64,000 nt of DNA. Source: Polaromonas sp. Its GTDB lineage: Bacteria > Pseudomonadota > Gammaproteobacteria > Burkholderiales > Burkholderiaceae_C. The stretch spans positions 1 through 64,000 of the forward strand of contig JAUXPP010000065.1 in the NCBI GenBank assembly GCA_030683705.1, read 5' to 3'. The position numbers and the translations under genes were made by a program. Position 1 is the stretch's first letter. The number at the start of each line of letters is the position of its first letter. Under the pieces are notes generated by a model that did not search any database, was not told where the DNA came from, and was given only the letters and a program-made list of their open reading frames with translations. Below, piece by piece: positions 27,647-29,412 of this stretch.

Positions 27647-28270
27647 TCAGACCTGCGTCCACACCGCCAGCTCGTAGCCGTCGGCGTCCTTGAAGTGGAA
27701 GCGCCGCCCACCGGGAAAGCTGAAGATCTCCCGGCAGATGCTGCCGCCGGCAGCCAGCACGCTGTCGCGGGCGGCCTCGAGCTGTTGGGCGTACAGGATG
27801 ACCAGCGGCCCGCCGGCGGGCGAGGGCGCGGCCGTGGTGGTCAGGCCGCCCTTCATGGCACCGTCGGAAAACTCGGCGTATTCGGGGCCGTAGTCGGTGA
27901 AGGTCCAGCCGAAGGCCTGGCCGTAGAAGGCCTTGGCTTTGGCGATGTTGCGAACGTTGAATTCGATATAGGGCCTGTTCCCACTATTTACACAAGTGCG
28001 AACGTACTTAAAACAGCGCCAATCTAGGCGCGCGACGACGTCCAGCCTGGGCGGCTGGGCTAGGAGTGCAACAACGAGTGGCGCTGTTTTAAGCACATTC
28101 CCTCCGGGTTGCGGCCAAAAAGGGCCATGCGCAGTGTTGCAAAGCCTTGCCGGGCGCCGGCCCGGCTGCATTTTGCGCCTCGCGCATGACCTTTTTGACT
28201 CGCAACGCATCTTGCATAAATAGTGGGAACAGGCCCTGATGATGCGGCAGTTTTCGGGGGTGGTGCTCAT
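27647..28270 (-). CDS. VOC/glyoxalase-like protein with a MITE-like element inserted in frame
   Basis: The C-terminal 115 or so residues are a VOC domain: RPYIEFNVRNIAKAKAFYGQ, TDYGPEYAEFSDG, and SFPGGRRFHFKDADGYELAV. The first residues (MSTTPENCRIIR) would normally join directly to PYIEF. Instead 87 codons from the 266-bp element intervene, Cys- and Arg-rich and unlike VOC sequence. The frame stays open through the element, giving 207 residues. Whether the product folds is unknown; it may be a functional null. The gene is first in the operon with the acetyltransferase and YdeI-like genes. Confidence 0.65.
   Translation of the reverse strand: MSTTPENCRIIRACSHYLCKMRCESKRSCARRKMQPGRRPARLCNTAHGPFWPQPGGNVLKTAPLVVALLAQPPRLDVVARLDWRCFKYVRTCVNSGNRPYIEFNVRNIAKAKAFYGQAFGWTFTDYGPEYAEFSDGAMKGGLTTTAAPSPAGGPLVILYAQQLEAARDSVLAAGGSICREIFSFPGGRRFHFKDADGYELAVWTQV
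27971..28236. mobile_element. 266-bp MITE-like element with perfect 20-bp terminal inverted repeats
   Basis: The left end GGGCCTGTTCCCACTATTTA (27971-27990) is the exact reverse complement of the right end TAAATAGTGGGAACAGGCCC (28217-28236). Inside, CTTAAAACAGCGCC near 28004 and GGCGCTGTTTTAAG near 28080 form a second inverted pair. No transposase is encoded. Flanks rejoin a VOC gene cleanly when 261 bp are removed, so only about 5 bp could be target duplication or shared ends. This is typical of a non-autonomous element mobilised in trans. Confidence 0.8.
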
Positions 28271-28557
28271 GCAGGTTCTCCGGAAAGTGATGGTTTTATT
28301 GTGCACGGACGGCACACCCCCGGCTTAACGCGACACAAGGGCGCTGCGCGCATCCCTTGTTTATGGGATGGATGCCTCGCGCCAGTGCCAATAAGCTGCG
28401 TTGGCACAGGCCGGAGCGGTGATCTCCTGCCGGGCCGAGCCGCCCACAGAAGGAGTCGGTCGAGGTGCTTGGTCCCGGCGGCGATGGGGGCCAGGCAAGC
28501 CAGCGGACTGACCATGTGGGCAAACCGGGCTTGAATCCGGAGTAAAGTCTCTTCGAG

Positions 28558-29370
28558 ATGTCGATTGGAATTTCCCTGTTGAAGATGCGCATGAATGTTG
28601 GCATATGGGCCAAACGAAGTCTGGTGGGCTTGCTGATGGCCGGACCGGTGCTGGCAATTGCCTGCGCAAGGACTGCGACTGACAGTGCTATTGCGGCGCG
28701 CCGCTGGATCCCCGTGATCAAGGCGGGGGAGCAGCAAGCCCCCCTCAAACAACACATGGTGATCGGATCGGTACATGCCTATCTGGTGCCGGAACAGACC
28801 GAGGCCAGCGTACAGACAGTCCGCCAGGGGATGATGGCGCCTTTGCAGATATTGTCCGATGAGGCGGTCGCGCGGGCGAGCCGGCGTTTTCGGTTTACGG
28901 GTGACGAGGTCTCGGCTTCCGCGCCTCCCGGCAGGAAGTGGATCCATGTCTACGCGTCGAGTTTCGGCAAAAGCGAGCTGCGATTGTCGGATTCATCGGG
29001 CTGGCGTCAGGTGGTGGAACTCGGCATGGTCTATCCGCAGCCCCAGCCGCGCGGCGAGCCCACCGAACTGAATCCCGATTCTGGTGGTGAACCCGTTTCG
29101 TTCGACGTGGACGCAAATAACAACACGCTTTGGCTCAGCCTGCCCGGACTCCTCAAGGAACGCTGGTCGATGGTCGAGGGCGAGGATACGAGTTTTGAAC
29201 TCGTGCGGATGGAGCAATTGCCAGTGCCCGATGGCGATCCGGCGCGGGTCGGTGTGTTCTTGGTGGGGAGCCGCTCCGCGCGCAGTGGGCAGATCCGCAT
29301 CGAAGGCGGGGGCATGCCGCGCAAGACCTTCAAATTCAATGTGCGTGTGAGACCGACAGCTGCGTGCTGA
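28558..29370 (+). CDS. Exported hypothetical protein
   Basis: A 270-residue protein with an N-terminal hydrophobic leader (about 18-36, SLVGLLMAGPVLAIACA). The LAIAC sequence is a weak lipobox, so lipoprotein anchoring is possible but unsure. The rest is soluble, beta-rich and without a motif I know. It may start at the ATG at 28558 or at later in-frame ATGs (for example MRMNVGIW). The 287 bp before it, back to the VOC gene, hold no other feature I can name. Confidence 0.6.
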   Translation: MSIGISLLKMRMNVGIWAKRSLVGLLMAGPVLAIACARTATDSAIAARRWIPVIKAGEQQAPLKQHMVIGSVHAYLVPEQTEASVQTVRQGMMAPLQILSDEAVARASRRFRFTGDEVSASAPPGRKWIHVYASSFGKSELRLSDSSGWRQVVELGMVYPQPQPRGEPTELNPDSGGEPVSFDVDANNNTLWLSLPGLLKERWSMVEGEDTSFELVRMEQLPVPDGDPARVGVFLVGSRSARSGQIRIEGGGMPRKTFKFNVRVRPTAAC

Positions 29371-29412
29371 GACACGAGGCGGTGCGCCCATCCAGAATGA
29401 TTGTCGGGAGGG

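What the first reader, a model, noticed from the sequence alone, without database searches (positions are those of the whole stretch)
27971..28236. 266-bp MITE-like element inserted in frame in a VOC gene
The perfect 20-bp terminal inverted repeats (GGGCCTGTTCCCACTATTTA and its complement), an internal inverted pair and absence of a transposase are directly visible. Removing 261 bp restores a normal VOC-protein start (...CRII-RPYIEF). Because 261 is divisible by three and the element has no stop in this frame, the gene encodes 87 extra Cys/Arg-rich residues. Elements that keep host genes open are unusual and recall protein-embedded palindromic elements of Rickettsia.
Basis: partly seen in the sequence, partly recalled or inferred. 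Interest (0 to 1): 0.8.

Follow-up and report, generated by a model that had tools for sequence, protein, structure and literature searches.

The report
Folded mobile DNA inside a gene
A 266-base mobile DNA element sits inside a metabolic gene of a Polaromonas bacterium and happens to leave its reading frame open; the frame is probably chance, but the element belongs to a large, strongly foldable family of mobile DNAs.

Summary
A 266-bp element with perfect 20-bp terminal inverted repeats interrupts a VOC-family gene near codon 12 and leaves one frame open. It is a MITE: 84 distinct full-length copies were collected, mostly from Polaromonas, typically flanked by TA in CTAG-like targets. All 10 other VOC copies examined have the empty site. 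IS5-family insertion sequences with similar ends and the same TA target occur in the genus and are the likely helper; none was found in the window's own assembly.

The 'protein-embedded element' reading is not supported, though an open minus frame is commoner than chance in the family. In that phase a 265-bp copy makes TA|G = TAG; 266- or 264-bp copies avoid the stop but shift the frame. None of 10 other likely gene-interrupting copies reads through, and there is no codon-position signal. The VOC frame survives because one duplicated base was lost.

The larger result: the element is an inverted doublet of ~116-nt bulged hairpins. Within the family its arms covary (78 of 105 pairs), G-T and A-C mismatches are equally rare (DNA rather than RNA folding), and related doublets of mostly 261-276 bp with other ends occur in many other families. 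I found no description in the open-access library; two relevant sources could not be read.

The parts
27971..28236 (.). MITE copy, 266 bp
   Evidence: 6 matches in own genome = 4 full copies plus two end self-matches; 84 distinct full-length copies collected; ends and fold
27971..27996 (+). left terminal inverted repeat (perfect 20 bp, extended)
   Evidence: the 20-mer with at most 1 mismatch is in 9 of 101 genomes, all same genus
28211..28236 (-). right terminal inverted repeat
27969..27970 (.). TA, intact copy of the target duplication
   Evidence: TA/CTAG-like context in most listed family copies
28237..28237 (.). remnant of the second TA duplication (one base lost compared with empty sites)
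   Evidence: comparison with L044-L047 and L173-L178
28000..28100 (.). hairpin module A (inverted relative to B)
   Evidence: A1 helices 2-4, columns 30-130; the model built on B finds an adjacent opposite-strand partner in 21 of 24 loci searched (in the window's own copy the opposite-strand hit is B itself)
28101..28107 (.). central CCC/GGG mini-hairpin between the modules
   Evidence: A1 helix 5 (two pairs) invariant in 35 of 35
28108..28206 (.). hairpin module B (basis of model R1)
   Evidence: A1 helices 6-8; R1 hit 28099-28214, 116.7 bits (the window is one of the model's own sequences)
28122..28124 (+). GGG where the 265-bp consensus has GG (+1 base; shared with one other genus copy, L093)
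27647..28270 (-). VOC gene with the element inside (ATG 28270; 11 + 89 + 107 codons)
28094..28096 (-). in-frame GTG inside the element preceded by GGAGG; possible internal start giving a shorter VOC fusion
   Evidence: sequence reading; not tested

Best explanation
It is a non-autonomous DNA transposon (MITE). Shown: a multi-copy family with conserved ends, TA duplication in CTAG-like targets, empty sites in relatives, and IS5-family insertion sequences with a similar end motif and the same target in the genus. Inferred: an IS5-family transposase moved it in trans into the Tyr codon (AAC TA|C) of a VOC gene. That creates AAC TAG, a stop, when both TA copies are intact. Loss of one base of the duplication, together with a copy one base longer than the 265-bp mode, made the net insertion 267 nt and left an open frame. 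The open frame is most likely fortuitous and the gene impaired, because the element folds into an extremely stable hairpin pair right after codon 12. Beyond this gene, the element belongs to a superfamily whose unit is two inverted copies of a ~116-nt bulged hairpin inside TIRs. The arms stay complementary and the length near 266 bp while end sequences differ. I infer that the folded DNA is what is selected, for instance as a structure that helps transposase or host proteins assemble the ends, with the outer ends tracking whichever helper is present.
For: Copies: 19 of 101 genomes have a match, 16 of them same-genus including its own; 84 distinct full-length copies, mode 265 bp; TA target. Empty sites: 10 of 10 other VOC copies, one (L176) alignable on both flanks. 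Helper: 6 of 13 transposase loci examined (L179, L183, L189, L190, L191, L193) have inverted ends such as GGGCCTGTTAACGCTA or GGGCGTGTTAACACTA and TA on both sides, five of them 824-831 bp and L190 708 bp (L172 is the same element as L179). L172 encodes DUF4096 and DDE_Tnp_1 pieces. Its ends agree with the window's in 13 and 12-13 of 16 bases (by reading); one end of L189 is identical over 16 bases to MITE copies L016 and L033. Junction logic: consensus frames; 0 of 10 other through-gene copies open, 7 of them closed by TAG at the junction. Architecture: 78 of 105 pairs with both-sided changes in 35 copies of the family; 96.3% of cells paired versus 80.2% shuffled and 33.7-43.6% slid; GT 50 versus AC 51 cells outside four pairs where GT is commonest; inverted second module in 21 of 24 loci. 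Breadth: 59 of 299 family genomes by DNA; by R1 109 of 349 order, 61 of 369 class and 43 of 299 phylum genomes.
Against: No DUF4096 transposase in the window's own assembly (91.8% complete, 172 contigs) and no hit of the L172 query in G000, so the helper is not shown in this genome. The IS and MITE share only the ends. 7 of 13 transposase loci showed no such ends. Structure kept with changing ends is unusual for a passive IS derivative. Near-perfect palindromy can also be maintained by template-switch correction without selection. Effect on VOC expression is untested; the VOC private changes (9 S: 8 N, with the L-to-F codon scored as two S; neutral expectation about 73% N) leave room for a still-functional gene. 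The commonness of an open minus frame is not explained.
Confidence: 0.82

Rival explanations
1. Protein-embedded palindromic element: the family carries a reading frame that is kept open so that insertions extend host proteins, as in Rickettsia RPEs.
For: The minus frame ending flush with the element is stop-free in 65 of 79 genus copies of 264-266 bp (5 copies of other lengths left out) and 22 of 40 copies drawn across the family, against 7% in shuffles; 48 of 54 close copies versus 36 expected in a star-model simulation; 265 + TA = 267, a multiple of 3; VOC ORF open.
Against: No codon-position pattern in column variability (p=0.64). In that phase 265-bp copies begin with TA|G = TAG, while 266- and 264-bp copies with an intact TA duplication shift the host frame. 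0 of 10 other through-gene copies read through. In the star simulation the plus frame deviates as strongly the other way (24 versus 36.6), so shared ancestry can explain such excesses. No Pfam match to a consensus-like peptide.
Confidence: 0.07
2. Ordinary MITE: an internal-deletion derivative of an IS5-family element with no function for its interior; covariation is a by-product of quasi-palindrome correction during replication.
For: IS-like ends and target; short 39-59-bp end-only palindromes show that deletions occur; GT=AC fits a DNA-level correction process.
Against: No significant similarity of the interior to five of the ISs (best E 0.20). Lengths of 261-276 bp in 30 of 34 divergent loci and ordered loop motifs although TIRs and arms differ. 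Fixed mismatches such as column pair 169/212 T-G in 35 of 35 should be erased by correction.
Confidence: 0.3
3. Mobile structured RNA gene (small RNA or attenuator) rather than a DNA structure.
For: Very stable RNA fold; Bordetella BRE repeats overlap small RNAs (PMC3110155, section 14), relation untested.
Against: GT pairs no commoner than AC outside four GT-preferring pairs (50 versus 51), whereas RNA selection tolerates GU; only one sub-threshold Rfam hit, mir-458, 25.5 bits versus 59.
Confidence: 0.08
4. The 89 codons are a conserved domain of this VOC subfamily.
For: The frame is open.
Against: 10 of 10 other VOC copies lack it and the DNA occurs at unrelated sites.
Confidence: 0.01

Closest known systems
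Bacterial MITEs mobilised by IS5-family (IS427-group-like) transposases
   Same: TIRs, TA duplication in CTAG-like targets, no transposase, multicopy; ISs with similar ends in the genus
   Different: Inverted doublet of hairpin modules, near-constant length over many families, ends that vary independently of the interior. The IS427 group name is recalled, not tested against ISfinder.
Polaromonas MITE cited to Mattes et al. 2008 (JS666)
   Different: Cannot tell: paper not held; known only through a citation in PMC10969869 (passages). It may be the same element.
Rickettsia palindromic elements (RPE)
   Same: Palindromic element lying in frame in a gene; a commonly open frame
   Different: RPEs are reported with a conserved peptide and many in-frame insertions (PMC10969869 passages); here one in-frame case, and no codon-position signal
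REPINs / REP doublets
   Same: Inverted hairpin doublet as a small mobile unit (only the starts of abstracts PMC3116915 and PMC8266576 seen; doublet structure recalled)
   Different: Larger, with TIRs and TA duplication; no search for a RAYT transposase was made
BRE, betaproteobacterial repeat element (Bordetella; 29 in JS666)
   Same: Overlapping taxonomic range, units of about 90 bp (PMC3110155 section 14)
   Different: Described as tandem repeats of variable number; sequence letters not in the text, so homology untested
Coxiella QMITE1/QMITE2
   Same: MITEs that sometimes extend or truncate ORFs (PMC5896051 passages, abstract among them)
   Different: Different organism and duplications; sequence relation not tested

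Membership tests
MITE | terminal inverted repeats | tested here: met
MITE | multiple dispersed copies of near-constant length | tested here: met
   84 distinct full-length copies, 265 bp mode
MITE | target site duplication and empty sites | tested here: met
   TA; 10 of 10 empty VOC sites; the own copy has lost one TSD base
MITE | no transposase of its own | tested here: met
   266 bp; no Pfam match to a consensus-like peptide
IS5-family (IS427-like) derived MITE | autonomous-size IS with matching TIR and target in related genomes | tested here: met
   6 of 13 loci; DUF4096 and DDE_Tnp_1 in L172; match limited to about the outer 16 bp, imperfect for the window copy; no interior similarity
IS5-family (IS427-like) derived MITE | helper in the same genome | tested here: not met
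   no PF13340 match in G000; assembly incomplete; other IS5 subgroups not tested
IS5-family (IS427-like) derived MITE | transposition in trans | not testable with these tools
   needs an assay
Rickettsia palindromic element-like | open frame kept in the element | tested here: inconclusive
   minus frame open in 65 of 79 and 22 of 40 copies, but no codon-position pattern
Rickettsia palindromic element-like | many copies in frame in different genes | tested here: not met
   0 of 10 other through-gene copies open
REPIN | inverted hairpin doublet | tested here: met
   21 of 24 loci
REPIN | associated RAYT/TnpA-REP Y1 transposase | not tested
   no search made
Rfam structured RNA | match to a described family at gathering score | tested here: not met
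   one sub-threshold hit in 27700-28500

The most novel reading that the evidence does not exclude
A previously unrecognised phylum-wide class of mobile DNA: inverted doublets of a fixed-mismatch hairpin module that work as folded single-stranded or cruciform DNA. The class keeps its size and loop motifs while swapping outer ends to match different IS5-type helpers, sometimes several end types in one genome (four copies of G424 have four different ends).
Probability: 0.35. Interest if true: 0.8.

Novelty: new variant of a known kind. Interest (0 to 1): 0.56.

Why it matters
MITEs are usually treated as decayed, lineage-specific IS remnants. An element whose interior is kept as an inverted hairpin doublet over many families, with ends that change, suggests that the interior is functional and that such elements persist by recruiting new helpers. 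It makes testable why some non-autonomous elements have a fixed length. It also shows how a CTAG-targeting element re-creates TAG, so that landing in stop codons is probably harmless (30 of 81 copies against 24 of 80 background CTAG sites, by a codon-usage model).

Tried and rejected
Codon-usage calls of intragenic copies were rejected: inspection of nine of them showed pieces that look like antisense shadow frames. They were replaced by a strand-aware model (81 of 84 copies, 3 dropped for short flanks). That model does not itself recognise the VOC insertion as through-gene, because only 12 codons lie upstream, so it can miss such cases. The VOC substitution test was inconclusive. Plasmid and phage collections gave no match. 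The Rfam mir-458 hit is taken as chance. An extra R1 hit in the own genome (C141; L271) shows no clear TIRs and stays unexplained. The +1 G may be ancestral (shared with L093) or a second compensating indel; not resolved. Paper searches in which I saw no description of a structured Burkholderiales or Pseudomonadota 266-bp MITE: (listings of the top hits only, open-access library). Papers seen: PMC10969869 passages, PMC5896051 passages, PMC3110155 passages and section 14. Not held: PMC2570305, PMC186582.

Full report
1. The observation. Ends 27971-27996 and 28211-28236 are complementary (perfect over 20 bp), with an internal inverted pair 28000-28024/28076-28100. As one strand it folds far below shuffles: RNA (minus strand) -161.9 kcal/mol, z -12.2; DNA (plus strand) -86.4, z -9.7. 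The minus-strand ORF runs through it into a VOC/Glyoxalase domain.

2. It is mobile. The own genome G000 (4.1 Mb, 172 contigs) has four full copies, the other three matching at 89-92%. Of 101 genomes searched, 19 have a match, 16 of them same-genus genomes including its own; the three others are partial matches. The search scores few candidates per genome, so copy counts are lower bounds. A pattern scan of named genomes returned 50 stretches from contigs titled Polaromonas, one MAG titled Ramlibacter and one titled Proteobacteria. I collected 84 distinct full-length copies, mode 265 bp. Flanks are commonly CTA or TTA before and TAG or TAA after the element, with many single-base departures, so the duplication is TA.

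3. Empty sites. Ten of 87 genus genomes, including its own, have a VOC match at E<=1e-30; the nine others hold ten copies. All ten read CR(I/V)N-Y(I/V)EL without an insert. One, L176, aligns with the window on both flanks. Compared with AAC TAC ATC, the window has ATC A[element]TAT ATC: one T (minus strand) of the expected TA duplication is missing and the element is 266 bp, giving a net +267 nt. The extra G at 28122-28124 is shared with one other genus copy, L093.

4. Is the open frame meaningful? In the 265-bp consensus the only internally stop-free phases are those in which the junction codon is TA|G = TAG. The minus one of these frames is open more often than chance: 65 of 79 genus copies and 22 of 40 copies drawn across the family, against 7% in shuffles. 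This favours a coding role, but the columns show no codon-position pattern (p=0.64). A 265-bp copy is in frame but starts with TAG; 266- and 264-bp copies escape the TAG in that frame but, with TA duplicated, shift the host gene. A strand-aware codon model put 10 of 81 copies inside a gene in consistent frame and 30 of 81 with TA|G as a gene's stop codon; background CTAG sites gave 16 of 80 and 24 of 80. None of the ten is read through; seven stop at the junction TAG, three inside the element. So the VOC case is an exception made by an atypical junction. Substitutions private to this VOC are 9 synonymous to 8 nonsynonymous (one L-to-F codon scored as two synonymous), which does not decide whether the gene works. 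A hairpin of this strength right after codon 12 should hinder expression (inference).

5. Helper. Of 13 loci with relatives of the L172 transposase examined for ends, six have inverted ends such as GGGCCTGTTAACGCTA or GGGCGTGTTAACACTA with TA on both sides, five of them 824-831 bp; seven showed none. L172 (the same element as L179) encodes DUF4096 and DDE_Tnp_1 pieces, i.e. IS5-family. The interior of the MITE has no significant similarity to the five ISs compared. No such transposase was found in G000. Short 39-59-bp palindromes consisting of the two ends only also occur.

6. A wider, structured superfamily. With the consensus as DNA query, 59 of 299 genomes of the family have matches at E<=1e-10, in 40 of 141 genera. 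An alignment of 35 copies, the window's and 34 of the 40 fetched, nearly all from other genera of the family (A1), gives a 105-pair fold with 78 pairs changed on both sides. Cells paired are 96.3% against 80.2% in shuffles and 33.7-43.6% when slid. Outside four pairs where GT is commonest, GT and AC cells are equal (50 and 51), as expected if complementarity is kept in DNA and not in RNA. Of 20 family loci whose BLAST match stopped short of the ends, 17 are 263-267 bp between inverted ends, many starting GAGCGTG or GAACGTG; for three the script drew shorter boundaries of 250-254 bp. A covariance model of hairpin B alone (R1) finds 109 of 349 order, 61 of 369 class and 43 of 299 phylum genomes at E<=1e-5 (rough E-values, overlapping genome sets that include close relatives). 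Of 14 hit loci opened have terminal inverted repeats of at least 15 of 16 bases; L257 and L260 do not. Over the 34 loci measure 261-276 bp (some lengths include flanking bases that extend the palindrome); L257, L260, L265 and L271 do not. Six motifs tested in the 14 occur in 11-14 of 14 against 1.1-7.3 in shuffles. In 21 of 24 loci R1 finds a second module on the other strand next to the first (exceptions L260, L264, L265; four of the 24 were in the model's own alignment), so the element is an inverted doublet. Genomes with several copies have them at different sites with nearly the same ends (G555, G841, G929), while four copies of G424 have four different ends.

7. Mechanism proposed. Shown: mobility by comparison, TA target, similar IS ends, inverted-doublet architecture, DNA-type covariation within the family. 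Inferred: trans-mobilisation by IS5-type transposases; the folded doublet as the selected part; ends replaced over time to follow helpers. Template-switch correction of palindromes is a real alternative for the covariation, but it does not explain fixed mismatches, loop motifs or near-constant length.

8. Novelty. MITEs that fuse with ORFs are known (review PMC10969869, passages; QMITEs, PMC5896051, passages). A Polaromonas MITE is cited there to Mattes et al. 2008, which I could not read, so the Polaromonas family itself may be known. I saw no description of the structured superfamily in eight listings, which cover open-access papers only. BRE repeats (PMC3110155 section 14) might be related; their letters were not available. 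Assignment of the genomes to Pseudomonadota follows from the Polaromonas names and recalled taxonomy.

Noticed in passing
window 28313-29412: About 1.1 kb between the VOC start and the end of the PLD-like gene is absent from the syntenic locus L176 of G038 (about 20 bp there), so it is an insertion here or a deletion there; it holds ORF 28558-29370.
   Followed up: partly
L145, L146, L147, L149, L150, L152, L153, L154, L162 (3329-3367): 39-59-bp palindromes made of the two MITE ends only, some with TA flanks; likely deletion derivatives. In L162 one lies about 1.1 kb from a full copy.
   Followed up: partly
G000:C141:44692-44804 (L271): A fifth, weaker module hit in the own genome without clear terminal repeats; possibly a decayed or single module.
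   Followed up: no
84 genus copies: By a codon-usage model, copies often sit in a gene's TAG stop codon, which the TA|G junction re-creates (30 of 81; CTAG background 24 of 80).
   Followed up: yes
genus and family copies: The minus frame that ends flush with the element is stop-free far more often than shuffles predict, without codon-position signal; unexplained.
   Followed up: partly
L011 and L029; L058 and L061: Copies at what look like the same sites in different Polaromonas genomes (similar flanks), i.e. shared old insertions.
   Followed up: no
L143, L144: Truncated copies running into CTAGGAGCCTGTCGG-type sequence close to contig ends; perhaps interrupted by another element with such ends.
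   Followed up: no
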